The translations under genes and the position numbers were made by a program. The notes under the pieces are model-generated. The model was given only the letters and a program-made list of their open reading frames with translations, made no database searches and was not told the origin of the DNA. From Rhizobium subbaraonis (lineage in GTDB: Bacteria > Pseudomonadota > Alphaproteobacteria > Rhizobiales > Rhizobiaceae), in contig NZ_OBQD01000004.1 of assembly GCF_900220975.1 (NCBI RefSeq), forward strand, positions 121,234-185,233: a DNA stretch of 64,000 bases. Reading direction: 5' to 3'. Positions 12,898 to 54,540 of the stretch are shown piece after piece. Each line of letters opens with the position of its first letter. Position 1 is the stretch's first letter.

Positions 12898-12951
12898 GGG
12901 GTGCCGCCAGCGCATAGGCGCAACTGCGGCACGCTACAGGCCGCCGATCCC
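12898..12951 (+). promoter_or_regulatory. 54-bp conserved element, copy upstream of the AlpA/RepA operon
   Basis: Matches 54487-54540 at 46 of 54 positions by hand. The core is an inverted repeat, GTGCCGC...GCGGCAC, with an inner hairpin GCGC-ATAG-GCGC, then GCTACA, which may be part of a -10 box. Its end lies exactly 69 bases before the start codon at 13021, as in the other copy. It is likely an activator site or promoter shared by two ICE operons. Confidence 0.75.
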
Positions 12952-13020
12952 TCGCCATCGTCCGCCACAGCCCGCTGTCGCTGCGACAGCCGCCTGTCTG
13001 ACGAACCGGAGAGAGATTCC

Positions 13021-13293
13021 ATGGCCATCCGCCCCAATGCGGACCTGCCGCCGCGCTTGCTGCGCACAAAAGAAGCCGCGCGCTTCCTCGGCCTGTCCAT
13101 CCGCACCCTTGAGAAGCATCGCACCTATGGCACCGGTCCGACCTACCGCAAGGTCGGAGGCCGCGTCCTCTACGCCGTCCGCGATCTGGAGGCGTGGAGC
13201 GCGATCGGCACCCGCAAATCCACCAGCGACAAGAACGCCGGCACGGTCTTCGCCGCCCGCCCGCTGACGCCAAAAGAGCGGGACGAACTGTAA
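13021..13293 (+). CDS. AlpA/MerR-type helix-turn-helix protein, candidate excisionase (RdfS-like)
   Basis: 90 residues from the ATG at 13021, preceded by GGAGAGAG. The HTH_17-type motif is LLRTKEAARFLGLSIRTLEKHR, followed by GGRVLYAVRDLEAW. Proteins of this form act as excisionases/recombination directionality factors or regulators. In related ICEs the excisionase gene lies at this place before the replication/partition genes, and FseA activates it. The repA-like gene starts directly after the stop. Excisionase versus RepA regulator cannot be decided here. Confidence 0.8.
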   Translation: MAIRPNADLPPRLLRTKEAARFLGLSIRTLEKHRTYGTGPTYRKVGGRVLYAVRDLEAWSAIGTRKSTSDKNAGTVFAARPLTPKERDEL

Positions 13294-14346
13294 ATGCTGC
13301 GCGACGACGATCCCAGACCCGCGCCGCCGAACGAAGATAGCGAGCGCACTCGCCTGGACCCGTTCATCGTGGCGACCGGCGACGCCGCTCCGCGCGACCA
13401 GCGCGATTTGATGGAGCGGCCGTTCTTCTCGCTGGCGAAGCGACCGCGCACCACGCCGATCCTCTACCGGGCCGCCGATGTCGAGGTGCAGGTCTTCGCC
13501 ATGCCCGAACATGGCATGGCGACGATCTGGGATGCTGATGTGCTGATCTGGGCCGCAAGCCAGATCGTGGCGGCCGAGAACAACGGCATCGCCACGTCGC
13601 GGTTCTTCCGTTTCATGCCCTATCAGCTTTTGCGCTCGATCGGGCGAGCCACCGGAAACCGCGACTATCTGTTGCTCAAGGCCGCGCTGGCGCGCCTGCA
13701 GTCGACCGTCATCGCCACCACCATCCGTAACGGCAAGCATTGGCGGCGGCGGCAATTCTCATGGATCAACGAATGGGAGGAAATGACCACCCACTCCGGC
13801 CGGGTGGAGGGCATGGAGTTCGTCCTGCCCGAATGGTTCTACAACAGCGTCATCGACCGCTCGCTGGTCCTGACCATCGACCCGGCCTATTTCCGGCTGA
13901 CCGGCGGCATCGAGCGCTGGCTCTACCGCGTCGCCCGCAAGCACGCCGGACGCCAGCCTGAGGGCTGGGCGTTCGAGGTTTCCCACCTTCACAAGAAATC
14001 CGGCAGTGCGGCGCGGCCGTCCGATTTCGCGCTCGACCTGCGCCGGATTGCAGCCCGCCAATCGCTGCCCGGATACCTGCTCCAGAGTGAATGGGAAGAT
14101 GGGCGCGAACTGCTGCGGTTTCTGCCCGAAAATCTATCCACAGTGCCTGTGGATAACCATGTGAATCCTATCGGGACATTAGGCGCACGCAGTATCGGGA
14201 CATTAGGCGCAAATCTCGCGCCGGACTCTATAGAAGAATCTAACAAAGAATCTAACTCTTCTTCTTTGACGCGCGCGCACGCGATCCGTGGTGCCGGTGC
14301 CAGTGCCGATAGTCGTGCTGCTTCCAGCCGACGAGGTGCGCCATGA
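13294..14346 (+). CDS. RepA-type replication initiator
   Basis: 350 residues. The family is replication initiator protein A of IncP/IncW-like alphaproteobacterial elements: RPRTTPILYRAADVEVQVFAM, ATSRFFRFMPYQLLRSIGR, and winged-helix segments with RWLYRVARKHAG. It would bind iterons and allow the excised circle to replicate. Its own 3' end contains DnaA boxes and two 19-bp direct repeats (14134-14211), so the origin is probably intragenic. The stop overlaps the parA start (ATGA). The C-terminal 60 residues are low-complexity and follow the repeats. Confidence 0.85.
   Translation: MLRDDDPRPAPPNEDSERTRLDPFIVATGDAAPRDQRDLMERPFFSLAKRPRTTPILYRAADVEVQVFAMPEHGMATIWDADVLIWAASQIVAAENNGIATSRFFRFMPYQLLRSIGRATGNRDYLLLKAALARLQSTVIATTIRNGKHWRRRQFSWINEWEEMTTHSGRVEGMEFVLPEWFYNSVIDRSLVLTIDPAYFRLTGGIERWLYRVARKHAGRQPEGWAFEVSHLHKKSGSAARPSDFALDLRRIAARQSLPGYLLQSEWEDGRELLRFLPENLSTVPVDNHVNPIGTLGARSIGTLGANLAPDSIEESNKESNSSSLTRAHAIRGAGASADSRAASSRRGAP
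14134..14211. other. Candidate replication origin (oriV) inside repA
   Basis: Two opposed DnaA boxes, CTATCCACA (14134-14142) and TGTGGATAA (14148-14156), form a 21-bp palindrome. Two identical 19-bp direct repeats, TATCGGGACATTAGGCGCA, follow at 14169-14187 and 14193-14211, spaced by 24 bases. In the protein they encode the repeat IGTLGA. DnaA boxes next to iterons are the hallmark of iteron-type origins. Confidence 0.7.
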
Positions 14347-14945
14347 TCGTCGCGCTTCTCAACCAGAAGGGCGGCGTCGGCAAGACCACGCTGGCGCTGC
14401 ATCTCGCCGGAGCCTGGGCGCAGCGGGGTCAGCGCGTCATCCTGATCGACGCCGATCCGCAAGGCTCCGCGCTCGACTGGTCGCAGACGCGCAGCCATGA
14501 GGGCCTGCCAAGGCTGTTCAGCACCATCGGCCTGGCCCGTGACACCTTGCACCGGGAAGCCCCGGAACTGGTCCGTGACGCCGATCACGTCGTCATAGAC
14601 GGGCCACCCCGCGTCGCCGCTCTGATGCGCTCGGCGCTGCTCGCCGCCGACCTGGTGCTGATCCCGGTGCAGCCGTCCCCCTTCGACGGTTGGGCCTCGG
14701 CCGAGATGCTGGCGCTTCTGAAGGAGGCGCGCATCTACCGGCCCGACCTCGCCGCCCGTTTCGTGCTCAACCGTTGCGGCGCGCGCACCGTCATCGCCCG
14801 CGAGACGGCCGAGACGCTTGCCGACCACGACCCGCCCTTGCTCGCCACCGCCATCGGCCAGCGTGTCGTCTTCGCCGATGCTGCGCAGTCCGGCCGCCTC
14901 GCATCCGAGATCGACCGGCTGCGGGTCGGAGGGATCGAACCATGA
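14343..14945 (+). CDS. parA: ParA-family partition ATPase
   Basis: 200 residues. The deviant Walker A motif is KGGVGKTT (residues 9-16), followed by VILIDADPQGSALDW (Walker A') and VVIDGPPRV (Walker B). Short ParA/ParF proteins of this length act with a small ribbon-helix-helix partner; the next gene overlaps by four bases and is a candidate. The role is segregation of the excised or replicating ICE. Confidence 0.92.
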   Translation: MIVALLNQKGGVGKTTLALHLAGAWAQRGQRVILIDADPQGSALDWSQTRSHEGLPRLFSTIGLARDTLHREAPELVRDADHVVIDGPPRVAALMRSALLAADLVLIPVQPSPFDGWASAEMLALLKEARIYRPDLAARFVLNRCGARTVIARETAETLADHDPPLLATAIGQRVVFADAAQSGRLASEIDRLRVGGIEP

Positions 14946-15196
14946 CCGGACGTACCCGCAAACCCGGCTTCGCGTCCCGGCCGGGCGATCTTGAAAGCTG
15001 GATCAAGGCGGCGGACATGCCGCCTGCCAGCAAGGCCGCCGGCGAAGCATTCACCGCCCGCCTGACCATCGACATCACGCCGGAACTGCGCGGGCGCATC
15101 AAGGTCGCCGCCTTCCGGCGCGGCATCACCGTCGCCGACATGCTGCGCGACCTGCTCGCCCGCGAATTTCCATCCACCGAAGGAGATCCGATATGA
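14942..15196 (+). CDS. Small putative ParA partner, ribbon-helix-helix-like
   Basis: 84 residues; the start overlaps the parA stop (ATGA) and its own stop overlaps the next start. The C-terminal half, FTARLTIDITPELRGRIKVAAFRRGITVADMLRDLLAREF, has a strand-helix-helix pattern like RHH DNA-binding proteins (ParG/CopG). The basic N-terminal tail also fits a ParG-like centromere-binding protein. Family assignment is from pattern, not from a specific signature. Confidence 0.7.
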   Translation: MTGRTRKPGFASRPGDLESWIKAADMPPASKAAGEAFTARLTIDITPELRGRIKVAAFRRGITVADMLRDLLAREFPSTEGDPI

Positions 15197-15711
15197 CCGG
15201 CAACGCGGCCCGCCGCATGCACGGCCGTCCGCTGCCGGACGGGCCTGCGCCCTTCACCACATTGGTCGAACTGACCTTCGACAAGCGCAAGGTCGAGCGC
15301 TGGATACGGTTCGGCCGCAAGAGCTACGAACAGATCATCGACCGCCGCCGCAGTATCGTCGGCTTCGCGCCGGAGAGCGTCTTCGCCTTCGTCCGCTGGG
15401 CGGCCGGCGAACACGGCACCGTGATTTCACGCATCGACATCGTGCGCGCGGTTCGCCGCGGCGAACCCTTCCAGACGCTGCCCTTCGTGCGCCCCGGAGG
15501 CGACATCCTGCTGCGCCTCGATAGCTGGGCGAAAGTGCAGCGCGCGCTTGTCGCCATAGACGCGGTGGAAGCACTCGGCCTCGATCCGGCCGACGCCGCG
15601 CCGGATCACTGGCGGCATGTCCACAACCGCCTTATCGCCGGTCTGGAGCCACGCGATTACACGCCGGAACGTCATGCCGCCTGGCTCCATCGTCGGAGGA
15701 TCGAGCCATGA
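15193..15711 (+). CDS. DUF2840 family protein
   Basis: 172 residues, ATGA overlaps at both ends, inside the parA-to-traF operon. Recognisable DUF2840 segments are FTTLVELTFDKRKVERWIRFGR, PESVFAFVRWAANEH-like (here VRWAAGEHG) and FVRPGGDILLRLDSW. The family is confined to conjugative elements of this type; its function is unknown. Conserved position between the partition genes and traF suggests a transfer-related role. Confidence 0.85.
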   Translation: MTGNAARRMHGRPLPDGPAPFTTLVELTFDKRKVERWIRFGRKSYEQIIDRRRSIVGFAPESVFAFVRWAAGEHGTVISRIDIVRAVRRGEPFQTLPFVRPGGDILLRLDSWAKVQRALVAIDAVEALGLDPADAAPDHWRHVHNRLIAGLEPRDYTPERHAAWLHRRRIEP

Positions 15712-16253
15712 CGCGGTTCGGCTACGTCATGGTGACGTATTTCGCGGCGATGGGCGTCGCCATCGCGGCGTTCATCCCGACGCCCACGAAACTGATCTGG
15801 AACGCCACGGCCAGCGCGCCCATCGGCTTCTACACCATCGAGCCGGCTGACCGCATCGGGGTGCCCGAGCTGGTCGCCGTTATGCCGCCCGAACCGCTCG
15901 CCGCCTTCATGATCGAGCGCGGCTATGTCGGGCGCGGCGTGCCGCTCCTGAAGCGCGTCCTCGGCCTGCCGGGACAGCGGGTTTGCCGCACCGGCAGCAC
16001 CATCACCGTCGATGGCGTCGAGATGGGGGAGGCGCTGGAGCGCGACCGGATCGGCCGCGATCTGCCCGTCTGGCAGGGCTGCCGCGTCATCGGCGACGGT
16101 GAAATCTTCCTCATGAATTGGGAAGTCCGCGACAGCCTCGACGGCCGCTACTTCGGACCCATCCCCGCAAGTTCCGTCATCGGTCGGGCGCTGCCGCTCT
16201 GGACCGATGAGGAAGGCGACGGCCGCTACGAATGGCGTGCGCCGACGCAATGA
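15708..16253 (+). CDS. traF: TraF, S26-family conjugation peptidase
   Basis: 181 residues with an N-terminal membrane anchor (residues 5-23). The catalytic serine is Ser36 in SAPIGFY, and the general-base lysine is Lys82 in LLKRVLGLPGQ, as in signal peptidase I. In IncP plasmids TraF processes and cyclises the TrbC pilin; the TrbC gene is at 45891. The start overlaps the DUF2840 stop by four bases. Confidence 0.92.
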   Translation: MTRFGYVMVTYFAAMGVAIAAFIPTPTKLIWNATASAPIGFYTIEPADRIGVPELVAVMPPEPLAAFMIERGYVGRGVPLLKRVLGLPGQRVCRTGSTITVDGVEMGEALERDRIGRDLPVWQGCRVIGDGEIFLMNWEVRDSLDGRYFGPIPASSVIGRALPLWTDEEGDGRYEWRAPTQ

Positions 16254-16321
16254 CCGCTTTCCCATCAGCGGGAGCGGTGCCCGCCGATGGTGTTTCCAAC
16301 CTCACCGCCAAGGAGATTGTC

Positions 16322-16657
16322 ATGCCCCAGATCGGTCAATTCACCGTCGAAAACGAAACCTTCGTTGGCCGTGTTCATACGCTCACCCTTTACCGCGAGC
16401 TGACCATCGTTCCTGCCGAACCATCGGATGCGGAGAACGCGCCCGCCTATCGCGTCCACCACGGCGCCGAGGACGGCCCGGAGGTCGGTGCAGGCTGGAA
16501 GGAGGTCGGCGAAAAGGCCGGCGACTACATTTCGCTGATGATCGACGATCCCGCTTTGCCGCAGCCGATCCGCGCCAACCTCTTCCAGAACAGCAACGAC
16601 AAGACAGCCTGGTCGCTGCACTGGAGCCGCCCGAAGCCGCGCGGCGGGCGGGGCTGA
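16322..16657 (+). CDS. DUF736 family protein
   Basis: 111 residues from the ATG at 16322, with AAGGAGATT just upstream; an open frame extends upstream but lacks support. It starts MPQIGQFTVENETFVGRVHTL and ends TAWSLHWSRPKP, the DUF736 pattern, and is more divergent than the 4482 copy. It lies between traF and the transglycosylase in the transfer operon. Function is unknown. Confidence 0.85.
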   Translation: MPQIGQFTVENETFVGRVHTLTLYRELTIVPAEPSDAENAPAYRVHHGAEDGPEVGAGWKEVGEKAGDYISLMIDDPALPQPIRANLFQNSNDKTAWSLHWSRPKPRGGRG

Positions 16658-16662
16658 AAGCC

Positions 16663-19954: not shown

Positions 19955-19957
19955 GCG

Positions 19958-24222: not shown

Positions 24223-25872
24223 CTAGCCGATGATGCTGTCGTCGGGGGTGACGCTGGCATATTCCTTGAGCACGATATCGCGGATCGCGGTTTTCAGGAG
24301 CTTGCCGGTCGCCGTGTGCGGCAGTTCGTCGACGATGATCACGTCGTCGGGGATGCTCCATTTGGAGATCCTGCCGGTATAGTGCTCGACCATCTCGTGG
24401 CGGCCGAAGCTCTCGCCGGGCTTCAGGACGACGACGAGGACCGGGCGCTCGCCCCAGCGCGCATCGGGCTTGGCGACGACCGCCGCCTCCTTCACCGCCG
24501 GATGGGCCTGAGCGATGTTCTCCAGTTCGATCGAACTGATCCATTCGCCGCCGGATTTGACGACGTCCTTGGTGCGGTCGACGATCTGGACGAAGCCGTC
24601 CTCGTCCATGGTGACGACGTCGCCGGTGTTGAACCAGCCGGGAACTTCGTGTGCGGCACTTTCCGAAGTGTTGTAGTAGCCGGCGGCGACCCACGGACCG
24701 CGCACCATCATCGCACCGAAGGCCTTGCCGTCTCGGGTGATCGGCTTGCCGTCGGCGCCGTCGACGCGGAACTCCATGCCGTAGACCGGGCGGCCCTGCT
24801 TGGCCTCGAGCATCAGCCTCTGTTCGGGCGTGAGCGACTGATGCTTCGGCATCAGGCAGGCGGCGAGGCCGATCGGGCTGGTCTCGGTCATACCCCAGGC
24901 ATGGCGGACCTTGACGCCCATGTTGTGGAAGCGGCTGATCATGATCGGCGGTGAGGCCGAGCCGCCGATCGCCACCCGCTTCAGGCTGGTGAAGCGCTGG
25001 CCGTGGGCGTCCATCCAGTCGAGCAGGCCGAGCCAGACGGTCGGAACGCCGGCGGTGCAGGTGACGCCTTCGGCTTCGAACAGGGCATGCAGGCTGGCGC
25101 CGTCGAGGTTCGGACCGGGCATGACGAGCTTGGCGCCGGCCATCGGGCCGGAGAAGGGGACGCCCCAGGCATTGACATGGAACATCGGCACGATCGGCGA
25201 GAGCACGTCGTTGGCCGACAGGCCGAGCACATCCGGCATCGAACTCGACATTGCGTGGAGCACGCTGGAGCGATGGCTGTAGAGAACGCCCTTCGGGTCC
25301 CCGGTCGTGCCGGAGGTGTAGCACAGGCCGGAGGCGGTGTTCTCGTCGAATACCGGCCAGTCGTATTCGTCGGACTCACCGGCGATCAGGGTCTCGTAGC
25401 AGGCAAGGTTCGGCAGGGCTTCCGACTTCGGCATGTGCGCCTCGTCGGTCATCATCACGATCGCCTTCATGCCGGAGAGCCGGTCGGCGAGTGCCTCCAG
25501 GATCGGCAGGAAGGTGAGATCGGCGAAGATCACGCTGTCGCCCGCATGCTCGATGATGTAGCCGATCTGCTCGCGGAAGAGCCGCGGATTGATCGTGTGG
25601 CAGACGAGGCCCGAACCGGAGACGCCGTAGTAGAGTTCCAGATAGCGGTAGCCGTTCCAGGCGAGTGTGCCGACGCGGTCGCCGAATTCGAGGCCGAGCC
25701 GCTTCAGCGCGTTGGCGAGCTTCTGGCTGCGCTTCGACAGATCGGCGTAGGTATAGCGGTGGATCGGTCCTTCGACCGTCTTCGACACGATTTCGGTCGT
25801 GCCGTGATAGGTCGCCGCGTGGCGCAGGATGGTCGACACCAGCAGCGGCGAGTTCATCATCATTCCGAGCAT
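24223..25872 (-). CDS. Fatty-acid/acyl-CoA synthetase (AMP-forming)
   Basis: 549 residues. ANL-superfamily motifs: [18 protein letters not shown] (P-loop, about residues 187-204), [33 protein letters not shown] and the catalytic Lys near the end in [10 protein letters not shown]. It activates fatty acids to acyl-CoA, the entry step of the beta-oxidation operon it sits in. The sequence resembles the medium/long-chain ligases of alphaproteobacteria (AlkK/FadD3-like); chain-length preference is unknown. Confidence 0.9.
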
Positions 25873-25899
25873 GCTACTTCCTCCCTTGGAGTATACGGA

Positions 25900-27660
25900 T
25901 CAGAAAAGGTCTTGGTTCAGGGCAATGATCGAGGTCGCTCCGTTGGCGATCGCGGTTTCGAGGCCGAGGGTCTGCGGCAGCATGCGATCGGCGAAGAAAT
26001 CGGCGACGGCGCATTTGCGGACCTTCGGCGGCGTATCGGCCGCCGCGGCGCTGGCGGCCATCTTCGCCCACATCCAGCCGAAGGCGGTGAGCGCGAAGAG
26101 GCGAAGATAGTCGGTTGCGGCCGAGCCGGCCACGGCCGGATCGCCGCTGCCGGCGAGCAGCAACTCGGTCGTGCGTTCGAGGCGGTCGAGCGCCGAGGCG
26201 GTGGCGGCGACGATCCGCTCTGTGGCGGGAACGAGTGACGCCGCCTGCAGATCCTGCTTGACCAGATCGAAGAAACGTCCGGCGAGTTCCCCGCCTTCCA
26301 TCGGCAGCTTGCGGCCGACGAGATCCATGGCCTGGACGCCGTTGGTGCCCTCGTAGATCTGGGTGATGCGGGCATCGCGCACGAACTGCTCCATGCCCCA
26401 TTCGCGGATATAGCCGTGGCCGCCGAAGACCTGTTGCGAAATCACCGCGGTCTCGAAGCCGAAATCGGTGAAGGCTGCCTTGACCACCGGCGTTAGCAGG
26501 GCGACGAAACCGTCGGCGCGCCGGCGTTCGGCGGGATCGGGATGGCGGGCGGCGATATCCATCTGCATGGCGGTCCAGATCGCCAGCGCCCGGGCGGCGT
26601 CGATGAAGGAACGGCCGGTCAGCAGCATCTTGCGTACGTCGGGATGCTCGATGATCGGGACGGGTCCGCGGCTGCCGTCGAGCGAACGACCCTGCAGGCG
26701 TTCGCGGGCGTAGCTGGCGGCCTTCTGATTGGCGGCTTCGGCGATGCCGAGACCCTGAATGCCGACGAACAGGCGTTCCGCATTCATCATCGTGAACATC
26801 GCATTCAGGCCGCGGCCCGGTTCGCCGACGAGCCAGCCGATAGCGCCGTCATAGTTCATGACGCAGGTCGGTTGGGCATGGATGCCCATCTTGTGCTCGA
26901 GCGAGCCGACCGACATGCCGTTGCGGGCGCCGAGGGAACCGTCGTCTTCGACGAGGAATTTCGGCGAGAGGAACAGGCTAATGCCCTTAACGCCCTTCGG
27001 TGCGTCGGGCAGGCGGGCGAGCACCAGATGGATGATGTTGCCGCCGAAATCCTGGTCGCCGGAAGAGATGAAGATCTTGGTGCCCTTGATCTTGTAGGAG
27101 CCGTCGCCGACGGGCTCGGCGCGGGCCGTGAGCAGACCGAGATCGGTGCCGGCGGAAGATTCCGTCAGCGCCATGGCCCCGGTCCATTCGCCGGAAATCA
27201 TCTTCGGCAGGTATTTCGCCTTCAACTCGTCGCTGGCGTGATGCTCGATCGCCTCGACGGCGCCGCGCGTCAGGCCCGGGAAAAGGCCGAAGGAGAGATT
27301 GGCGGAAGACAGCATCTCGTCGAGCAGGATCTGGGTTGCGCGCGGCAGGCCCTGGCCGCCGAATTCCGGCGCGCCGGACAGCCCGGCCCAACCGGCCTCG
27401 ACAAAGGCCTTGTAGGCGTCTGCGATGCCCTTCGGGGTGGAGACGAGGCCGTTTTCGAGCTTGCAGCCTTCTTCGTCGGCCGGGCGGTTCAAGGGTTCCA
27501 GCACGCCGGCGCAAAACTTGCCGCCTTCCTCGAGCACAGAGACGGCGAGTTCGGCGCTCACTTCCTCGTAGCCCGGCAGCGTCTGCATCTGGCCGTCGAA
27601 ATCCAGCACGTCGTTCAGCAGGAAGGCGATGTCGTCGATCGGGGGATTGTAGGATGCCAT
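25900..27660 (-). CDS. Acyl-CoA dehydrogenase, long form
   Basis: 586 residues, the size of acyl-CoA dehydrogenases with an extra C-terminal domain. Seen: MALTESSAGTDLGLLTARAEPVGDG (FAD-binding), QQVFGGHGYIREWGMEQFVRDARITQIYEGTNGVQAMDLVGRKL. The catalytic base is likely the Glu in YEGTNG. It performs the first oxidation of beta-oxidation and passes electrons through ETF to the ETF-quinone oxidoreductase of the same operon. Confidence 0.92.
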   Translation of the reverse strand: MASYNPPIDDIAFLLNDVLDFDGQMQTLPGYEEVSAELAVSVLEEGGKFCAGVLEPLNRPADEEGCKLENGLVSTPKGIADAYKAFVEAGWAGLSGAPEFGGQGLPRATQILLDEMLSSANLSFGLFPGLTRGAVEAIEHHASDELKAKYLPKMISGEWTGAMALTESSAGTDLGLLTARAEPVGDGSYKIKGTKIFISSGDQDFGGNIIHLVLARLPDAPKGVKGISLFLSPKFLVEDDGSLGARNGMSVGSLEHKMGIHAQPTCVMNYDGAIGWLVGEPGRGLNAMFTMMNAERLFVGIQGLGIAEAANQKAASYARERLQGRSLDGSRGPVPIIEHPDVRKMLLTGRSFIDAARALAIWTAMQMDIAARHPDPAERRRADGFVALLTPVVKAAFTDFGFETAVISQQVFGGHGYIREWGMEQFVRDARITQIYEGTNGVQAMDLVGRKLPMEGGELAGRFFDLVKQDLQAASLVPATERIVAATASALDRLERTTELLLAGSGDPAVAGSAATDYLRLFALTAFGWMWAKMAASAAAADTPPKVRKCAVADFFADRMLPQTLGLETAIANGATSIIALNQDLF

Positions 27661-27681
27661 GTCGTTGTTCTTCCTTGGCGA

Positions 27682-29979
27682 TCAGTTGCGCAGCGGTTTG
27701 CCGGTGGTGAGCATGTGCTTCACCCGGTCCACGGTTTCCGGCGTCTCGAAGAGGGCAATGAAGGCCCGGCGTTCGAGGGCGATGATCTCGTCCTCGGTCG
27801 TCGGCTTCAACGGGTCGGCGTTCGGTCCGCCGCTCAAGACATCGATCAGCGCCGCGCCGACGACCTTGTCGTGGGCGGTGGCGCGGCCCGCGAGCGCTTC
27901 GCTCTCGACGATGTTGCGCATTGCCGAGGCGCCGGACGGACCGGACAGCGGTAATTGCGGCGGTTCCGGCGCGACGTAGCCGTCCACCAGCGACAGGGCT
28001 TTCTCTTTGGCGTCGGCCAGAAGGCGGTCACGGTTCATCGTGACACCATCGGTCGCCCTGAGGAAGCCGAGGCCGCGGGCCTCGAAGGCGCTGCCGGAGA
28101 CCTGAGCCGGGGCGATGAGGTTGAAGGTGGCGATCGCGGGCGCGACCGGTCCCTTGGTGCCGCCGGCGAGCCCATATTGGCGGACCAGCATTTCCTTGCA
28201 GCCGCCCCAGCCCGGCACGACGCCGATGCGGGTTTCGACGAGGCCGATCGAGAGTTCGGCATGGGCCTGGATCGCGTCGCAATGGAGCAGGATCTCGCAG
28301 CCGCCGCCGAAGGCGAGCCCGGAGGGAGCGCCGACGACCGGGAAGGGCGCGTATTTGACAGCCATGAAGGTCCGGTGCCCCTTGTCGATGAACTTGCCGA
28401 GTGCTTCGGAACCGCCGGTCTCGACGGTTTCGAGGAAGACCCGGAGATCCGCGCCGGCGCTGTAGACGGGCGAATCCGAACCGATCACCAGTGCCTTGAA
28501 GCTCCTGCCGACCTCACCGAGCGCCGCATCGATCGCGTCGAGCAGGGCTTCGGAGAAGGTGTTCATCTTGGTGCGGAACTCGAGGCAGGCGACACCGTCG
28601 CCGAGATCCCAGAGCGCGGCGCAGCCATAGTCGACCACCGGCTTGCTCGAAAGCTTCACGTCGGCGATGGTGATGACGCCCTCGCCGCGCATGACCGGGC
28701 GAACGGCGCCATCGGGCAACAGGCAGCTCCGCCTGCCATCGACGACGCTGTAGAATCCGCCCTTTGCGGCGGCGAGCGCCAGATAGGCGGGAACAGTGAG
28801 ACCGCGCGCCTCGAGCCGGTCCACCAGCCAGCCGGCGCCGAGGCGGTCGATCAGTTCGAACGGTCCCTGCTTCCAGCCATAGCCGGTGCGCATGGCGTCA
28901 TCCACCGCGTCGGGGCGATCGGCGATTTCCGGAACGAGGGCGGCGGCATAGGCCAGCGATTTTTCCATGACGACGGAGGCGTAGCATCCGCCGGGGCCGG
29001 GATGTTCCATCAAGGCGCGCGCATCGCCCTTCGCGGCATCCAGGCTTTCGGAGGCGACCTTCTTCATCGGCCGGTAGTCGCCGGTCTTAAGGTCGGTGAT
29101 GTCGCGGGTCTTGCGGTCGGCCGAAAGACGGACGAAACCGGCGCCGCTCTTTCGGCCGAGACGGTTTTCCGCGATCATTTTCGCGATCAGCGCCGGCTCG
29201 GCGTCATAGTCGTGGATCGCGTCGGTCTTCGGCAGGGCGTTCTGCAGGCTGCGCAGGATGGTCGGCATCAGGTCGATGCCGACGAGATCGAGCAGGCCGA
29301 AGATTCCGGTCGAGGGAATGCCGAAAGGCTTGCCGATGATGGCATCGGCTTCCTCGACGTCGAGGCCCATGGCGATCGCCTCGTTCTGGGCGACGACCAT
29401 CCAGTAATTGCCGATGCGGTTGCCGATGAAGCCGGGCGTGTCCTTGCAGACGACGACCGTCTTGCCGAGGCCGCGATCGGCGAAGTCATGGATTTTCGCG
29501 GTCACGTCCGGCCGGGTCTTCGGGCCGGAGACAAGTTCCAGAAGCCGCATGATGCGCGGCGGATTGAAGAAGTGGGTGATGAGGAAATCGGCGGCGAAGC
29601 TTTCCGGCAGGCCGTCCGTCAACGCGGCGAGCGGGATGGTCGAGGTGTTGGAGGAGACGATCGAACCGGGTTTGCGCACCGCGTCGATCGCCTTGTAGAG
29701 GGCCTGCTTGATCTCCAGCCGTTCGGCGACGGCCTCGACGATCCAGTCGGCGTCGGCGAGCAGGCCCATATCGTCGCCGGTCGATCCGGTGGTGATGCGG
29801 CCGGCAAAGCTCTTGTCCATGAAGCCGTTCGCCTTCAGCTGGCGGGCGACGCCGCCGTCGGCGAATTTCTTTTCGATGTCGAGCAGCACGACCTCGATGC
29901 CGGCATTGGCGAGATGGGCGGCGATGCCGGAACCCATGACACCGGCGCCGATGACGCCGGCCTTGGTGATCTTCGTCAT
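27682..29979 (-). CDS. 3-hydroxyacyl-CoA dehydrogenase / enoyl-CoA hydratase, FadN type
   Basis: 765 residues from the ATG at 29979 (MTKITKAGVIGAGVMGSG); longer starts would overlap fadA. The dehydrogenase comes first (NAD site GAGVMGSGIAAHLANAG; DTPGFIGNRIGNYW) and the hydratase domain is C-terminal (YSAGADLRVF, GLAFGGGCEILLHCD, ETRIGVVPGWGG). This order is the reverse of E. coli FadB and matches FadN. The thiolase gene ends one base before the start. Confidence 0.9.
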   Translation of the reverse strand: MTKITKAGVIGAGVMGSGIAAHLANAGIEVVLLDIEKKFADGGVARQLKANGFMDKSFAGRITTGSTGDDMGLLADADWIVEAVAERLEIKQALYKAIDAVRKPGSIVSSNTSTIPLAALTDGLPESFAADFLITHFFNPPRIMRLLELVSGPKTRPDVTAKIHDFADRGLGKTVVVCKDTPGFIGNRIGNYWMVVAQNEAIAMGLDVEEADAIIGKPFGIPSTGIFGLLDLVGIDLMPTILRSLQNALPKTDAIHDYDAEPALIAKMIAENRLGRKSGAGFVRLSADRKTRDITDLKTGDYRPMKKVASESLDAAKGDARALMEHPGPGGCYASVVMEKSLAYAAALVPEIADRPDAVDDAMRTGYGWKQGPFELIDRLGAGWLVDRLEARGLTVPAYLALAAAKGGFYSVVDGRRSCLLPDGAVRPVMRGEGVITIADVKLSSKPVVDYGCAALWDLGDGVACLEFRTKMNTFSEALLDAIDAALGEVGRSFKALVIGSDSPVYSAGADLRVFLETVETGGSEALGKFIDKGHRTFMAVKYAPFPVVGAPSGLAFGGGCEILLHCDAIQAHAELSIGLVETRIGVVPGWGGCKEMLVRQYGLAGGTKGPVAPAIATFNLIAPAQVSGSAFEARGLGFLRATDGVTMNRDRLLADAKEKALSLVDGYVAPEPPQLPLSGPSGASAMRNIVESEALAGRATAHDKVVGAALIDVLSGGPNADPLKPTTEDEIIALERRAFIALFETPETVDRVKHMLTTGKPLRN

Positions 29980-29980
29980 C

Positions 29981-31102
<1,122 letters not shown>

Positions 31103-40233: not shown

Positions 40234-40311
40234 GGCAACGGAATGCGCAGGAGGCGGGGCAATAGTCATGGTGCAGAAGGGGTGATCGCGATTCCCGGCG
40301 GTCGCATCCCG

Positions 40312-41211
40312 ATGATCGCTCTGGTCCAGACGCTCGCTGTCGCGGAATATCTCAGCTTCCATCGCGCCGCTCTGGCGCTCGGCACCAGTCAGTCGAGCGT
40401 CAGCACACGGATCAAAGCGCTGGAGGAAGACCTGGGCATCACCCTCTTCGACCGCAATACGCGCGGCGTCCGCCTTACCGAAGCCGGACGCCGCTTCGTC
40501 GATCAGGTTCATGATGCCATGGGCATTCTGGACAGGGCAATTCAGACGGCCGGAATGCAGTCACGGGGCGAGGATGGCGAGATTCGGATCGGCGTTCATG
40601 CCATCACGCCGGGCTGTTTCCTTAACCGCCTGTTGGAAAGCTTCCAGACCGAGCATCCGGGTGTCCGCCCCAGTATTACCGAAGGCACGGCACGCGACAC
40701 CCAGCTCATGGTTCGCGAAGGCCAACTGGATGCCGCTTTCATGGCCGGAAACTACGAAATCCCCGACCTCAATTGTCGCGTGATCTGGCATGACCGCCTG
40801 ATGGTGGCGCTGCCAGCACGACACGCATTGGCTGCGCAGCAGAATCTCGAATGGCGGCAGCTCGCAGAGGAAACCTTCCTCGTTCGCCATAATGGCACCG
40901 GCCCGCAGGTGCATGATCTGATCGTTGCCCGTTCGGCAGGAAAACGGCTGACACCAGCAATCCAGCGCGTTGATGTCGAGCGCAGCACGCTGATGTCGAT
41001 GATTGCCGCAGGGCATGGCATTTCGCTTTTCGTCAAGGAAAGCACCGCTGCCGCTATGGCAAATGTCGTTTTTCTGCCGATCCTTGACGAGCCTGAAACC
41101 ATCCCGTTCTCGGCGGTCTGGTCGCCGCGAAATCGCGATCCCCTGCTGTCGAACCTTCTCGCCCTGGCGACGAAAATGGGCCGCTCGCATCCAAAATCCG
41201 ATTCGCGATAG
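40312..41211 (+). CDS. LysR-family regulator, paralogue of the 5030-5917 gene
   Basis: 299 residues from the ATG at 40312; the frame is open upstream (GGRIPM) as in the paralogue. HTH SFHRAALALGTSQSSVSTRI; LFDRNTRGVRLTEAGRRF. Long blocks are shared with the 5030 gene, including LSMIAAGHG-type and ETIPFSAVWSPRN segments. It is the last cargo gene before the traG region. Its target is unknown. Confidence 0.87.
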   Translation: MIALVQTLAVAEYLSFHRAALALGTSQSSVSTRIKALEEDLGITLFDRNTRGVRLTEAGRRFVDQVHDAMGILDRAIQTAGMQSRGEDGEIRIGVHAITPGCFLNRLLESFQTEHPGVRPSITEGTARDTQLMVREGQLDAAFMAGNYEIPDLNCRVIWHDRLMVALPARHALAAQQNLEWRQLAEETFLVRHNGTGPQVHDLIVARSAGKRLTPAIQRVDVERSTLMSMIAAGHGISLFVKESTAAAMANVVFLPILDEPETIPFSAVWSPRNRDPLLSNLLALATKMGRSHPKSDSR

Positions 41212-43351: not shown

Positions 43352-43361
43352 GAGGCCGCCC

Positions 43362-46504: not shown

Positions 46505-46515
46505 CGGAGGCGCAC

Positions 46516-49739: not shown

Positions 49740-49759
49740 CCTGACAGGAGGGGCGCGAC

Positions 49760-50047: not shown

Positions 50048-50050
50048 ACC

Positions 50051-51409
50051 ATGGGCGGCACCGGCGTCATCGACTCGTTTCTAGGCGTATTCACCTCATA
50101 CATCGACAGCGGCTTCGGCCTGCTCGGCGGCGAGGTGGCGTTCATCGCCACAACGCTCATCGTCATCGACGTGGTGCTGGCGGCACTGTTCTGGTCGTGG
50201 GGCGCCGATGACGACATCATCGCCCGGCTGGTGAAGAAGACCCTGTTCGTCGGCGCGTTCGCCTACATCATCGGCAACTGGAACAATCTGGCGCGCATCG
50301 TCTTCGAGAGCTTCGCCGGTCTCGGCCTCAAAGCCTCCGGCACCAGCTTTTCCACCGCCGATCTGATGCGCCCCGGCAAGGTGGCGCAGACCGGCCTCGA
50401 CGCGGGCCGCCCGCTGCTCGACTCCATCTCCGATCTGATGGGTTACTGGTCGTTCTTCGAGAACTTCATCCAGATCGCCTGCCTGATGTTCGCCTGGGCG
50501 CTGGTGCTGCTCGCCTTCTTCATCCTCGCCATCCAGCTTTTCGTGACGCTTATCGAGTTCAAGCTGACCACGCTCGCCGGCTTCGTGCTGATCCCGTTCG
50601 GTCTCTTCGGCAAGACTGCCTTCATGGCCGAGCGCGTGCTGGGCAACGTCATCTCGTCGGGGATCAAAGTCCTCGTGCTGGCCGTCATCATCGGCATCGG
50701 CTCGACGCTGTTCTCGCAGTTCACCGCAGGCTTCGGCGGCGCAACGCCGACCATCGACGACGCCATGGCGATCGTGCTCGCCGCCTTGTCGCTGCTCGGC
50801 CTTGGCATCTTCGGTCCCGGCATCGCCTCCGGTCTCGTTTCGGGCGGCCCGCAGCTTGGCGCGGGTGCGGCGATCGGCACCGGCCTTGCCGTAGGAGGCG
50901 CAGCCCTTGCCGCAGGCGGTGCAGCCGGTCTCGCCGTCAAGGGAGGTGCTACCGCCATGTCCGGTGGCGCCGCGGCCGTTCGGGGCGGCGCTGCCGCCTC
51001 CGGAGGGGCCGCAGCGACCTACAGCATGGCTTCGCTCGGCCAATCTGGTGCGGCGGGCGTTGCTTCCGGTCTCGGCGGGGTTGCCCGCGCGGCAGGCTCC
51101 GCCGCCGTATCGCCTCTGAAACGCGCCGCCTCGAAAGCAACGGAAAGCGTCAAATCCAGCTTTTCGGATGGCGCACGCGCAGCCTTCGGGGTGACAGGGG
51201 GATCATCCACCGCAGGCACGGCCGGAGGCAGCAGCGCAGCCCCCGCAGCAGCGTCTTCCCCCGCTGGCAGTCCCCCGGCCTGGGCGCAGCGGATGCAGCG
51301 TTCCCAAGCCGTGAATCACGGCGCCACCATGGCCGCCCATGCGGTGCGTTCCGGCGACAGCCACGGTGGCGGCTCCTCCGTCAATCTCTCTGAAAGTGAC
51401 CGCTCATGA
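50051..51409 (+). CDS. trbL: TrbL, VirB6-like channel protein
   Basis: 452 residues with about six or seven membrane segments in the first 280 residues (IATTLIVIDVVLAALFW, FAWALVLLAFFILAIQLFVTL, VLVLAVIIGIGSTLF). The C-terminal third is an Ala/Gly/Ser-rich soluble tail, typical of TrbL. It forms part of the inner-membrane pore. trbF overlaps by four bases. Confidence 0.93.
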   Translation: MGGTGVIDSFLGVFTSYIDSGFGLLGGEVAFIATTLIVIDVVLAALFWSWGADDDIIARLVKKTLFVGAFAYIIGNWNNLARIVFESFAGLGLKASGTSFSTADLMRPGKVAQTGLDAGRPLLDSISDLMGYWSFFENFIQIACLMFAWALVLLAFFILAIQLFVTLIEFKLTTLAGFVLIPFGLFGKTAFMAERVLGNVISSGIKVLVLAVIIGIGSTLFSQFTAGFGGATPTIDDAMAIVLAALSLLGLGIFGPGIASGLVSGGPQLGAGAAIGTGLAVGGAALAAGGAAGLAVKGGATAMSGGAAAVRGGAAASGGAAATYSMASLGQSGAAGVASGLGGVARAAGSAAVSPLKRAASKATESVKSSFSDGARAAFGVTGGSSTAGTAGGSSAAPAAASSPAGSPPAWAQRMQRSQAVNHGATMAAHAVRSGDSHGGGSSVNLSESDRS

Positions 51410-52095
51410 GCATCTTCAAACGACCATCGACCCATTACGGCAAATCGCCCGAACCCGAGACGCCTTACCAGAAGGCTGCTCAAGCCTGGGATGAGCGCAT
51501 CGGCTCGGCCCGCGTGCAGGCGAAGAACTGGCGCTATATGGCCTTCGGATCGCTGATCCTCTCGGCCGGTTTCGCCGCCGCGCTCGTCTGGCAATCAGCG
51601 CGCGGGACCGTGGTGCCGTGGGTGGTGCAGGTCGATAATCTCGGCCAGGCGCAGACTGTCGCACCCGCTAACGCCGATTATCGCCCGACTGACCCGCAGA
51701 TCGCGTTCCATCTGGGCCGCTTCATCGAACAGGTCCGGGCGATCCCGGCAGACGCCATCATCGTCCGCCAGAATTGGCTCCGCGCCTATGAGTGGACCAC
51801 GGATCGCGGCGCAGCGGCCTTGAACGACTACGCCCGCAGCAACGACCCGTTCACGAAGGTCGGTCGGCAGCAGGTCGCCGTCGAGGTTTCCAGCGTCATC
51901 CGAGCATCGAACGACAGCTTCCGCGTGGCGTGGACCGAGCGCCACTATGAGAACGGCCAGCTTTCCACGACCGAACGATGGACCGCGATCCTGACCATCG
52001 TGATCCAGACCCCGCGTGACTCCGAGCGCCTGCGCGCCAATCCGCTCGGCATCTATGTCAACGCAATCTCATGGTCGCGGGAGATGAGCCAATGA
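51406..52095 (+). CDS. trbF: TrbF, VirB8-like protein
   Basis: 229 residues. Cytoplasmic N-terminus (NPYQKAAQ-type motif, here TPYQKAAQAWDERIGSAR), a single membrane segment (MAFGSLILSAGFAAALVW) and a periplasmic NTF2-like domain with VEVSSVIRASNDSFRVAWTER. Scaffold between inner-membrane complex and core. Overlaps trbG. Confidence 0.94.
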   Translation: MSIFKRPSTHYGKSPEPETPYQKAAQAWDERIGSARVQAKNWRYMAFGSLILSAGFAAALVWQSARGTVVPWVVQVDNLGQAQTVAPANADYRPTDPQIAFHLGRFIEQVRAIPADAIIVRQNWLRAYEWTTDRGAAALNDYARSNDPFTKVGRQQVAVEVSSVIRASNDSFRVAWTERHYENGQLSTTERWTAILTIVIQTPRDSERLRANPLGIYVNAISWSREMSQ

Positions 52096-53108
52096 CCCGC
52101 ACGACGCTCCGCAAAGCCCCATTTCAGGATTTCCGTAAACCCGCCTTCGCGGCTTTGATGCTGTCGGCCACGATGCTCGCCGGCTGCGCGACCAACCGCA
52201 CGCCGCAATTCAGCTACGACGCCGACGTGCCGTCATCGCCCGTTGTGCCGGCCGCCGTCACCGATGACCGGCCCCGGCCGCTGCATACGCCACCGGCCTG
52301 GACCGTGGCGCGCGGCGGGACCTCCGCCGGAACACCGGCAGGCCGTGTCGAGAACGCCAATGCCGCCGCGCGCGTCGAGCCGCGCCGCGAGGGCTACTAT
52401 AACGCCATCCAGATTTATCCCTGGTCGGAAGGCGCGCTCTATCAAGTCTATGCCGCACCGGGACAGATCACGACCATTGCGCTCGAACCCGGCGAGGGCC
52501 TGACCGGCGCGGGGCCGATTGCAGCCGGCGACACCGCCCGCTGGATCATCGGCGATACCGAGAGCGGATCGGGGACAACACGCCGCGTCCATATCCTCGT
52601 GAAGCCGACGCGCCCGGACATCATGACAAACCTCGTCGTGACGACCGACCGGCGCACCTACATGATCGAGTTGCGCGCCCGCGAAGCCCTCTATATGCCC
52701 TCCGTCGCCTGGGCCTATCCCGCACCACCAGCGGGCCAGCGCCAGACCGTTCCGGCCGCTCCGGTCATCCCGGCCGAGGCCGCGCGCAAATATCGCTATG
52801 GCCTGACCGGCGACAGCCCGCCATGGCGGCCCATCTCTGTCTTCGACGATGGTCGCCGCATCTATGTCGTCTTCCCTCGCGGCATCGTGCAGGGCGAGAT
52901 GCCCCCGATCTTCGTCATCGGCTCGGATGGCGAAACCCAGATCGTCAACAGCCGCATCCACCAGAACATCCTGATCGTGGATCGCCTGTTCGGCGCGGCC
53001 GAATTGCGCCTTGGCAGCGGCGAGCGCCAGCAGACGGTCAGGATCGTCCGCATTGAGCAACGGCAGGCTGCACAGCCGGCAAAAGCGACCGGAGAATCCC
53101 CGTCATGA
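52092..53108 (+). CDS. trbG: TrbG, VirB9-like outer-membrane core protein
   Basis: 338 residues; ATGA overlap with trbF. The signal with lipobox LAGC (Cys about residue 35) suggests lipidation. VirB9 domains: IQIYPWSEGALYQVYAAPGQITTIALEPGE and FDDGRRIYVVFPRGIVQGEMPPIFVI. Forms the outer-membrane core with TrbI. Confidence 0.94.
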   Translation: MTRTTLRKAPFQDFRKPAFAALMLSATMLAGCATNRTPQFSYDADVPSSPVVPAAVTDDRPRPLHTPPAWTVARGGTSAGTPAGRVENANAAARVEPRREGYYNAIQIYPWSEGALYQVYAAPGQITTIALEPGEGLTGAGPIAAGDTARWIIGDTESGSGTTRRVHILVKPTRPDIMTNLVVTTDRRTYMIELRAREALYMPSVAWAYPAPPAGQRQTVPAAPVIPAEAARKYRYGLTGDSPPWRPISVFDDGRRIYVVFPRGIVQGEMPPIFVIGSDGETQIVNSRIHQNILIVDRLFGAAELRLGSGERQQTVRIVRIEQRQAAQPAKATGESPS

Positions 53109-54256
53109 CTGAAGACACGCCCCCTGTAGAAGCTGCAGCGGACACCACCACACCCATGCGGCTGCGCACTGAGCCGCCGCGCGTCACCCGTCTGTCCCGC
53201 AAGATGCTGGCCGGCGTCGGCGCAGTTGCTTTGCTCGGCATCGGCGGGGCGCTGATCTACGCGCTCCAGACTCGCGATGCAGGGCCGGGAGGCGAAGAAC
53301 TCTATTCGACCGAGAACCGGCCCACGGCGGACGGCCTGTCCGGCCTGCCGCGCGATTATACCGGCCCGGTCCTCGGACCGGCATTGCCCGGCGATCTGGG
53401 CGGCCCGATCCTCGACGCGCAGAACAGGGGCCAGCCAGTTGCGCCGCCGGCTATGGCAACACCAGTTCGCGATCCTGCCGAGGAGCGCCGCCTCGCCGAA
53501 GAGGAAGCTGCACGTCTCAGCACGGTGTTTTTCCAGTCCGGGCAGAGAACGGCAACAGCCCCCGGTTCCAATATACCGGGCCTTGCAGGTCTTGGCGTCG
53601 GCGGTCAGCCAGCCACGCGAGACCGGCATACGGCCTTTCTCAATGGCCCGGTGGATCGGCAGACGGTCGCCCTGGATCGCATCATGGCTCCGGCATCGCC
53701 CTACATCCTTCAGGCCGGGGCCGTTATCCCGGCGGCGATGATTACCGGCATCCGTTCCGATCTTCCCGGCCAGATCACCGCGCAGGTCACGGAAAACGTC
53801 TACGACAGCCCGACCGGCAGCCTGCTGCTGATCCCGCAGGGAACGCGCATCATCGGCCAGTATGATGCCGGCGTGACCTTCGGCCAGCGCCGCGTGCTGC
53901 TCGTCTGGAACCGACTGATCCTGCCCAATGGCCGTTCCATAGTGCTGGAGCGCCAGCCGGGAGCGGACGCTTCCGGCTATGCCGGCCTTGAGGATGGCGT
54001 CGATTATCATTGGTGGGATCTGATGAAGGCAGCCGGCCTCTCGACGCTGCTCGGCATCGGCACCGAACTGGCGACCGATGACGAGGACCGCCTGATCCGG
54101 GCTATCCGCGACGGGGCGCAGGACACCATCAATCAGGCCGGACAGCAGATCGTCCAGCGGCAGTTGCAGGTCGCGCCGACGCTGACCATCCGGCCCGGCT
54201 TCCCGGTCAGGGTCATCGTCACAAGGGATTTAGTCCTCGAACCCTACAGGAATTGA
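53105..54256 (+). CDS. trbI: TrbI, VirB10-like core protein
   Basis: 383 residues; overlaps trbG. One membrane helix (LAGVGAVALLGIGGALIYALQ, about residues 35-55), a Pro-rich periplasmic arm and the C-terminal VirB10 barrel: SPYILQAGAVIPAAMITGIRSDLPGQITAQVTENVYD, LLLIPQGTRIIGQYD. Spans both membranes and senses ATP use. Confidence 0.95.
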   Translation: MTEDTPPVEAAADTTTPMRLRTEPPRVTRLSRKMLAGVGAVALLGIGGALIYALQTRDAGPGGEELYSTENRPTADGLSGLPRDYTGPVLGPALPGDLGGPILDAQNRGQPVAPPAMATPVRDPAEERRLAEEEAARLSTVFFQSGQRTATAPGSNIPGLAGLGVGGQPATRDRHTAFLNGPVDRQTVALDRIMAPASPYILQAGAVIPAAMITGIRSDLPGQITAQVTENVYDSPTGSLLLIPQGTRIIGQYDAGVTFGQRRVLLVWNRLILPNGRSIVLERQPGADASGYAGLEDGVDYHWWDLMKAAGLSTLLGIGTELATDDEDRLIRAIRDGAQDTINQAGQQIVQRQLQVAPTLTIRPGFPVRVIVTRDLVLEPYRN

Positions 54257-54258
54257 CC

Positions 54259-54474
54259 ATGGCAAAGCTGAAACTCGGCCCGCTGGCCGACGACAAGCCG
54301 GTGAAGGTGGCAGTGGAACTTCCCGCGCAGCTCCACCGCGACCTGATCGACTATGCCGCTCTGTTGGCCGATGGCGGTGCGCCGATCGAGCCTGCCAGAC
54401 TTATCGTGCCGATGCTGGAGCGGTTCATCGCCACGGATCGCGGTTTCGCCAAGGCGCGGCGGCAACCCTCCTGA
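54259..54474 (+). CDS. DUF2274 family protein
   Basis: 71 residues from the ATG at 54259; a TTG at 54253 overlapping the trbI stop is the alternative. MAKLKLGPLADDKPVKVAVELPAQLHRDLIDYA resembles small RHH-like proteins; RLIVPMLERFIATDRGFAKARR is the family end. Always found after trbI in this ICE class. Likely DNA-binding; function unknown. Confidence 0.85.
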   Translation: MAKLKLGPLADDKPVKVAVELPAQLHRDLIDYAALLADGGAPIEPARLIVPMLERFIATDRGFAKARRQPS

Positions 54475-54486
54475 TCCATCGCGGTA

Positions 54487-54540
54487 GGGGTGCCGCCGGC
54501 GCACAGGTGCGAATGCGGCACGCTACACTCCGCCGGTCCC
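54487..54540 (+). promoter_or_regulatory. 54-bp conserved element, copy upstream of the recombinase operon
   Basis: Partner of 12898-12951. It retains the outer arms GTGCCGC/GCGGCAC; the inner hairpin has changed to GCGC-ACAG-GTGC, preserving pairing with a G-U. TACACT follows in the -10 position. It also ends 69 bases before the next start codon (54610). Confidence 0.75.

What the first reader, a model, noticed from the sequence alone, without database searches (positions are those of the whole stretch)
12898..54540. A 54-bp element shared by the AlpA/RepA operon and the recombinase operon at identical distance from the start codon
12898-12951 and 54487-54540 agree at 46 of 54 positions and both end exactly 69 bases before an ATG (13021 and 54610). 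The substitutions keep an inverted repeat, GTGCCGC/GCGGCAC, and an inner hairpin (GCGC/GCGC versus GCGC/GTGC), so structure or dyad symmetry is maintained. A TAC-A box follows. The two operons encode a candidate excisionase plus replication genes, and the integrase. I propose this is the target of the FseA-like activator, synchronising excision and replication.
Basis: partly seen in the sequence, partly recalled or inferred. Interest (0 to 1): 0.82.

Follow-up and report, generated by a model that had tools for sequence, protein, structure and literature searches.

The report
Shared switch for excision and integrase
A mobile DNA element carries the same regulator-binding site in front of its excision/replication genes and in front of its integrase genes, so one activator probably turns both on together, and a single amino acid of that activator tracks the site's sequence across related elements.

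Summary
In detail: 46 of 54 bases match, both copies lie 69 bp before an ATG, about 2e-9 expected by chance. The element is a dyad, GTGCCG-N20-CGGCAC, followed by a -35-like GCTACA and a -10-like hexamer 17 bp on. It resembles the published FseA box but is wider. Copy A precedes an rdfS-like operon (AlpA/HTH_17, RepA, ParA, TraF-like, relaxase). Copy B precedes orf104, an HTH protein and a large serine recombinase at the tRNA-Ser end of a ~71-kb ICE. Box B precedes all 30 orf104 loci examined (of 60 places); at two loci an AlpA-type gene convergent with a tyrosine integrase takes the serine module's place and the box stays. Where both arms changed (GTG/CAC to GGG/CCC), FseA has Lys-to-Arg at the start of the DUF2285 recognition helix (K 63/63, R 8/8, at least two origins); AlpA, RepA, QseM and DUF6499 show no perfectly separating column. 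So an FseA-type activator probably binds both. Known: FseA to rdfS. New: direct control of the recombination module, and a candidate specificity residue. The inner hairpin and equal distances are not conserved. Binding and activation are untested.

The parts
12901..12932 (+). Box A, dyad GTGCCG-N20-CGGCAC; similarity to copy B extends over 12898-12965
   Evidence: conserved at 77 of 80 AlpA-selected loci in one of its arm variants
12933..12961 (+). Core promoter A: GCTACA, 17 bp, CATCGT (inferred -35/-10)
   Evidence: sequence; family counts
13021..13293 (+). AlpA/HTH_17 protein, 90 aa, RdfS-like by synteny
   Evidence: PF12728; gene order as in PMC8627217 passages
13294..14346 (+). RepA, replication initiator protein A
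   Evidence: PF10134 E 1.1e-82
14343..14945 (+). ParA-type ATPase
15193..15711 (+). DUF2840 protein
   Evidence: PF11000
15708..16253 (+). S26 signal peptidase, TraF-like
   Evidence: PF10502
16207..17586 (+). SLT transglycosylase
   Evidence: PF01464
17516..19954 (+). DUF3363 relaxase
   Evidence: PF11843
8939..9154 (+). FseA-like, N-terminal ORF (DUF6499 domain, motif AWEYLRRN)
   Evidence: PF20109
9081..9722 (+). FseA-like, C-terminal ORF in the +1 frame (DUF2285 domain); codon of the covarying Lys at 9624-9626
   Evidence: PF10074 E 1e-29
12261..12554 (-). QseM-like lone DUF2285 protein
   Evidence: PF10074 23.4 bits, below its curated cut-off of 26.4
54490..54521 (+). Box B, dyad GTGCCG-N20-CGGCAC; similarity to copy A extends over 54487-54554
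   Evidence: present at 30 of 30 orf104-selected loci examined, own locus included
54522..54550 (+). Core promoter B: GCTACA, 17 bp, CATGCT (inferred -35/-10)
   Evidence: sequence; family counts
54610..54924 (+). orf104, unknown, first gene of the recombinase operon; candidate directionality factor (guess)
   Evidence: no Pfam hit, no NCBIfam hit; conserved
54944..55333 (+). Winged-helix (HVO_A0114/MarR-like) protein
   Evidence: PF25212
55330..56982 (+). Large serine recombinase, the integrase at the right end
   Evidence: PF00239, PF07508, PF13408
56950..57039 (-). tRNA-Ser(CGA); right attachment site lies in it

Best explanation
The element is the upstream part of two FseA-type, activator-dependent promoters of an ICEMlSym/Tn4371-like ICE. 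A dimer of the element's own FseA-like protein (DUF6499-DUF2285, presumably fused by +1 frameshift) binds the dyad GTGCCG-N20-CGGCAC, one DUF2285 recognition helix per arm, beside a weak -35, and recruits RNA polymerase. At copy A this turns on the rdfS-like/RepA/ParA/TraF-like/relaxase operon; at copy B the operon of orf104 and the large serine integrase. One decision, restrained by the QseM-like antiactivator, thus starts replication, DNA processing and recombination together. In R7A the published wiring is a chain (FseA to rdfS, RdfS to intS); here FseA-type control would be direct on both. Shown: the sites, their conservation, the gene content, the covariation of arms with one FseA residue. 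Inferred: binding, activation, timing of excision, the role of orf104.
For: Box A at 77 of 80 AlpA-selected loci (arm variants counted) and FseA DUF2285 upstream in 78 of 80. Box B at 30 of 30 orf104-selected loci, 29 with perfect arms. 17 of 17 same-contig pairs run A to B on one strand, 20,991-45,593 bp apart. Box position next to a -35-like hexamer, as described for PrdfS. At L099 and L130 box B precedes an AlpA-type gene convergent with a tyrosine integrase beside a GMP synthase gene instead of the serine module (Pfam on the L099 proteins). Arms GTG/CAC versus GGG/CCC go with FseA K (63 of 63) versus R (8 of 8), at least two origins; 2 of 500 random pseudo-clade pairs give such a column; AlpA, RepA, DUF6499 and QseM have none; two further GGG loci both have R, one of them (L374) with the same box as L230 and perhaps a copy. 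The residue is third in the predicted H3 helix, four before R170-R171, matching in spacing R243/R247/R248 of R7A FseA, which are needed for activation.
Against: No binding or expression data. Arm spacing (20, or 18 if the hexamer is cut one base further in) differs from the published 15-16. In R7A most single-base changes in a hexamer cost little, which weakens the weight of a one-base covariation. The GGG state has only about two origins, and four loci with one changed arm keep K. More distant FseAs with other arms (L245, L254) also have R. One column of the QseM alignment is near-perfect. Box B is missing in sister lineages and in one relative with the same recombinase operon (L325). The QseM-like hit is below Pfam's cut-off.
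Confidence: 0.8

Rival explanations
1. The shared segment is a binding site of the AlpA/RdfS-like protein: autoregulation at A and activation of the integrase operon at B, as RdfS acts on its own promoter and on intS in R7A.
For: R7A RdfS binds PrdfS over the -35/-10, just downstream of the FseA site, and stimulates intS (PMC11963761 passages); the shared stretch includes the core promoter.
Against: The change in both arms has no counterpart in any of 90 AlpA columns, but has one in FseA. The dyad sits where the FseA box sits, upstream of the -35. The published work found no clear shared RdfS motif (PMC5882170 passages).
Confidence: 0.08
2. The pair reflects recent copying of promoter A to the end of the trb cluster without retained function at B.
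For: Box B is absent from sister classes, so it was gained or lost as a unit; 68 nt are alike in the window.
Against: The 23 distinct B boxes keep the six arm pairs, one G-T apart, while the spacer varies; the box persists when the module behind it differs. Copying and function are not exclusive.
Confidence: 0.05
3. The site is bound by a host regulator or by the winged-helix protein of the recombinase operon.
For: Such proteins often regulate their own operon (general knowledge); the HTH gene lies two genes downstream of box B.
Against: It would have to act on copy A 41 kb away; the closest other HTH loci have a neighbour gene (DUF6516 in the annotated plasmid L332) and the HTH gene occurs at loci where no such dyad was seen within 560 bp upstream. 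The covarying residue is in the element's FseA.
Confidence: 0.04
4. The element works as an RNA structure (attenuator or hairpin) in the leader.
For: Nested inverted repeats in the window copies.
Against: The inner pairs are not kept (24 of 53 and 6 of 23) and the inferred core promoter lies downstream of the dyad, so it would not be transcribed from it. No Rfam family matches it at gathering score.
Confidence: 0.02

Closest known systems
FseA box of PrdfS, ICEMlSym R7A (PMC10359603: abstract and outline, sections 10, 18, 19 and 25 read, passages elsewhere)
   Same: Inverted repeat beside the -35 of an rdfS promoter; an FseA-type gene in two overlapping frames on the same element; a QseM-like gene.
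   Different: Arms 20 (or 18) bp apart instead of 15-16; arm sequence GTGCCG; a second copy at the recombinase operon, which the sections and passages I saw do not mention.
R7A and ICEMcSym1271 excision cascade: FseA to RdfS to intS, rdfG, rdfM (PMC11963761 and PMC5882170, passages only)
   Same: FseA-type activator, rdfS-like first gene, recombination module switched on by the same pathway; at L099/L130 an rdfG-like gene convergent with an integrase.
   Different: Here the activator's box lies directly on the recombination module instead of RdfS relaying the signal; the main integrase is a serine recombinase.
FseA/QseM/RovC DUF2285 proteins
   Same: Domain content; predicted H1-H2-H2b-H3 layout; top fold match is the QseM NMR structure 7uqt, probability 0.94.
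   Different: That match has E 0.37 and no match reached E 0.001; RovC is not among the 50 rows shown. Lys instead of Arg at the R243-like position in the GTG lineage.

Membership tests
Canonical FseA box | Inverted repeat immediately upstream of the -35 of an rdfS promoter | tested here: met
   Dyad followed directly by GCTACA and, 17 bp on, a -10-like hexamer, at A and B; the promoter elements themselves are inferred
Canonical FseA box | Hexamers 15-16 bp apart (28-bp box) | tested here: not met
   GTGCCG-N20-CGGCAC, 32 bp. Published value. TGTCGA-type relatives do have 15-16 (read by eye). So: works like an FseA box, a wider variant
Canonical FseA box | Bound by FseA | not testable with these tools
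   Indirect only: arm/residue covariation
Canonical FseA box | Needed for FseA-dependent transcription | not testable with these tools
   needs reporter assays
FseA-type activator | DUF6499 with AWEFLRRN-like motif plus DUF2285, often split by a +1 frameshift at TGGGGG/WGL | tested here: met
   AWEYLRRN, RWGL, TGGGGG and DUF2285 in the +1 frame; that PF20109 and PF10074 are the present names of DUF6499 and DUF2285 is recalled; frameshifting itself not testable
FseA-type activator | DNA-binding Arg residues R243, R247, R248 in H3 | tested here: inconclusive
   K166, R170, R171 have the same spacing and lie in the predicted H3; the R7A sequence was not at hand for alignment
RdfS | HTH excisionase gene heading the Rep-DUF2840-traF-rlxS gene order | tested here: met
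   against PMC8627217 passages
RdfS | Promotes excision by its integrase | not testable with these tools
   whether it serves a serine integrase is open
ICEMlSym/Tn4371-like ICE | trb conjugation cluster, traG, relaxase, integrase, att ends in a chromosome | tested here: met
   TraG, TrbI and DUF3363 relaxase, serine integrase, ends by comparison with genus-mates
RNA hairpin element | Conserved inner hairpin | tested here: not met
   24 of 53 A and 6 of 23 B boxes

The most novel reading that the evidence does not exclude
DUF2285 activators and their boxes form a diversified lock-and-key system that insulates ICEs of one backbone living in the same cell: the third residue of helix H3 (Lys or Arg, R243 of R7A FseA by register) reads the second base pair of the arm (T:A or G:C), other lineages have other H3 starts and other arms, and in one lineage the same key has been extended to command whichever recombination module sits behind the trb cluster, serine or tyrosine.
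Probability: 0.5. Interest if true: 0.78.

Novelty: new variant of a known kind. Interest (0 to 1): 0.62.

Why it matters
FseA-type switches are described as spread through proteobacterial mobile elements (PMC10359603), but the target studied there is rdfS. A second, direct target at the integrase operon turns a relay into a single-input module and would explain how a serine integrase is tied to the same decision as replication and conjugation. The Lys/Arg-arm covariation gives a testable specificity residue for the extended-turn HTH of DUF2285, and box sequences could be used to predict which genes each element's activator controls and whether co-resident ICEs cross-talk.

Tried and rejected
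RNA attenuator: rejected, inner pairs not kept. Tyrosine integrase, my first assumption: rejected, it is a serine recombinase. Equal distance as a constraint: rejected. Box B as a general feature of the backbone: rejected. Each of the 7 GGG-class genomes searched shows one GGG box (L242, the eighth, was not searched); their other rows are GTG boxes or chance-like. The 11 genomes of the GTGCCGGAATC class show one box per locus plus two opposite-strand re-hits. The other own-genome ICEs show box A alone within the stretches held, and for the GTGGGGA type genome-wide. Limits: trbI was found in the stretches of C58, C43 and C30 but not of C71 and C65, so the far end of those two was not seen; a strongly diverged box B would be missed. 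More GGG boxes in the order: 68 of 397 genomes hit, but control hits are about as common or commoner; one row, L352, looks like a one-arm variant of the GTG box and I followed none of them. Tighter pattern in the family: 21 of 394 genomes; 4 places with full GGG arms, two of them new (L374, L376), the rest GTG boxes at 3 mismatches. orf104 in viral contigs: none. PDB by sequence: nothing useful. orf104 structure not attempted. Of the 60 orf104 places only the 30 with a locus were examined. Rows left out before counts: groups omit L245, L254 (no classed box) and L250 (GTGTCG arm); omits L223, L245, L250, L251, L254, had no GGG rows for ParA, 7 for QseM, and takes the best tblastn hit per locus, which for QseM may sometimes be the FseA domain. 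The null uses nearest neighbours as pseudo-clades, not tree clades. The short-spaced dyad count has no shuffle control.
Full report
Observation. The two 54-mers match at 46 positions and both end 69 bp before an ATG; chance expectation is about 2e-9. The ungapped match runs on to 68 nt at 81%. The genome (6.58 Mb, 85 contigs) has no third copy at up to 3 mismatches.

Setting. The element is an ICE of about 71 kb. Genus-mates share the chromosome from about window 56948 onwards, and on the other side up to about C54:107411-107471, 13.8 kb before the window. The right end lies in tRNA-Ser(CGA), 56950-57039 minus, where the large serine recombinase (55330-56982) ends. Copy A precedes AlpA/HTH_17, RepA, ParA, DUF2840, S26 peptidase (TraF-like), SLT transglycosylase and DUF3363 relaxase, close to the rdfS-Rep-DUF2840-traF-rlxS order described for ICEMlSym-like ICEs (PMC8627217, passages). 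Copy B follows trbI and precedes orf104, a winged-helix protein and the recombinase. The element encodes a DUF6499 ORF (8939-9154) and, in the +1 frame, a DUF2285 ORF (to 9722), with TGGGGG at the overlap as described for FseA, and a QseM-like lone DUF2285 that scores just below Pfam's cut-off.

Conservation. A pattern scan of 394 genomes of the family hit 39; the reversed-pattern control is 0 in every row. I fetched all 65 sites other than the window's two. Of the 67: 35 stand before AlpA; 27 before orf104, 26 of them with the serine recombinase within the stretch (L126 lacks it); 2 (L099, L130) after trbI and before an AlpA-type gene convergent with a tyrosine integrase next to a GMP synthase gene; 3 (L088, L117, L145) are cut off or have no recognised gene (Pfam for the L099 proteins). 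The convergent layout is that of rdfG/intG in ICEMcSym1271 (PMC5882170, passages); that IntG targets guaA is recalled. All 17 same-contig pairs run A to B on one strand, 20,991-45,593 bp apart, one of them with the tyrosine module. Selection by protein gives the same answer. Of 80 AlpA loci, 64 have GTGCCG/CGGCAC, 7 GGGCCG/CGGCCC, 1 GGGCCG/CAGCCC, 4 GGGCCG/CGGCAC, 1 GTGTCG/CGGCAC and 3 none of these. Of 60 orf104 places in 52 of 394 genomes, the 30 with a locus, own copy included, all have the box, 29 with perfect arms. FseA_C is found upstream of AlpA in 78 of 80, FseA_N in 77, QseM in 61. The loci lie in many alphaproteobacterial families and in two gammaproteobacteria, Modicisalibacter and Brenneria.

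Anatomy. In 53 distinct A and 23 distinct B boxes the six arm pairs are almost invariant; the one both-sided change is at pair 2/31 (T-A to G-C in 7 A boxes; 2 more are one-sided). The inner hairpin is not kept. Directly after the arm come GCTACA (29 of 77 A, 27 of 30 B) or GCTACG (23 of 77, 2 of 30); 17 bp later CATGGT (49 of 77 A, 23 of 30 B) or near variants such as CACGGT and CATCGT. This is where the published box sits relative to the PrdfS -35 (PMC10359603, section 18). The published hexamer spacing of 15-16 is not met; TGTCGA-type boxes at the same place in other lineages do meet it (read by eye).

Who binds. A change of both arms from GTG/CAC to GGG/CCC goes with Lys to Arg at one FseA column: K in 63 of 63, R in 8 of 8 (one of the 8 has CAGCCC as its right arm). 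It is the only column the screen returned, and starred branches of the FseA tree force at least two changes of the GGG label. The four loci with one changed arm have K; 2 of 500 random pairs of pseudo-clades give a perfectly separating column. AlpA (90 columns), RepA (380), DUF6499 (74) and QseM (97; one near-perfect column) have no perfect one. Two GGG loci found later, L374 and L376, have R; L374 has the same box as L230 and may be a copy. Among the 35 A sites, 20 read K by pattern, one more (L143) by eye, and 14 stretches hold no FseA; these overlap in part with the first set. The AlphaFold model (mean pLDDT 79, pTM 0.58; 95 in residues 161-170) puts the residue (K166, codon 9624-9626) third in helix 164-181, four residues before R170-R171. 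In R7A FseA, R243A, R247A and R248A cut activation strongly and R247A-R248A binds poorly (section 19). The spacing 243/247/248 matches 166/170/171; this is a register inference, since the R7A sequence was not at hand. Other arm classes have other H3 starts: xIRE with TGTCGA arms, SxLRDA with TGGGGA arms, SxxRH with GGGCGAA arms (with boxes). The own genome holds six AlpA copies of this backbone with at least three arm types, and G670 and G649 hold GTG and GGG types together, so insulation of co-resident elements would be useful.

Limits. Box B is a trait of the GTG lineage. Seven GGG-class genomes, 11 genomes of a sister class and the other own-genome ICEs, as far as held, show box A alone, and L325 carries a 75% identical serine recombinase with orf104 and no such box. 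In R7A single-base changes in a hexamer had little effect, so a one-base covariation is suggestive, not proof. Nothing here shows binding or activation.

Literature. In the held library 'FseA box' or 'FseA binding' text occurs in two papers. Searches combining FseA or rdfS with DUF2285, AlpA, tripartite, serine recombinase, DUF2840 and Tn4371 terms listed no paper that, in what I read, reports an FseA site at a recombinase operon or this specificity residue. I read sections and passages of four papers, no supplements, and subscription papers are not held.

Noticed in passing
window 12580-12820: A strongly conserved non-coding stretch between the QseM-like gene and box A, with a short dyad GTGCCG-N7-CGGCAC at 12724-12742 (a like dyad in 38 of 79 AlpA loci, at most one substitution, no shuffle control) and a sub-threshold Rfam match to sRNA-Xcc1 at 12615-12705 minus, 28.7 bits against 53; aligned in 10 loci, the two most distant of which lack it.
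   Followed up: partly
G000 contigs C71, C65, C58, C43, C30: The same genome holds five more AlpA copies of this backbone, each with its own FseA- and QseM-like genes and other box arms.
   Followed up: partly
window 54924-54944: Relatives have an extra gene between orf104 and the HTH gene (HTH starts about 746 bp after the box in many, 418 in the window); in the annotated plasmid L332 it is DUF6516. The window lacks it.
   Followed up: partly
L332 (Enterobacter hormaechei plasmid), L331 (Paracoccus plasmid): DNA like box B occurs in 12 plasmid records; in L332 it is followed by orf, DUF6516, HTH and recombinase after trbI, in L331 the recombinase is on the other strand. The four Ketogulonicigenium hits lie just upstream of their AlpA gene (positions).
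   Followed up: no
L099 and L130: ICE ends where an AlpA-type gene under a box and a convergent tyrosine integrase sit beside a GMP synthase gene.
   Followed up: partly
window 2-128 and 7668-7794: 96% identical 127-nt direct repeat; the second copy lies just before a DUF932 gene.
   Followed up: no
window 5095-5931 and 40298-41134: 80% alike inverted copies lying in two LysR regulator genes.
   Followed up: no
window 4105-4136 and 4545-4576: Perfect 32-nt inverted repeat 408 nt apart.
   Followed up: no
window 9913-12155 and 24223-30060: Cargo: BioY, EamA transporter and GntR regulator; fatty-acid beta-oxidation genes (AMP-binding, acyl-CoA dehydrogenase, 3-hydroxyacyl-CoA dehydrogenase/enoyl-CoA hydratase).
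   Followed up: no
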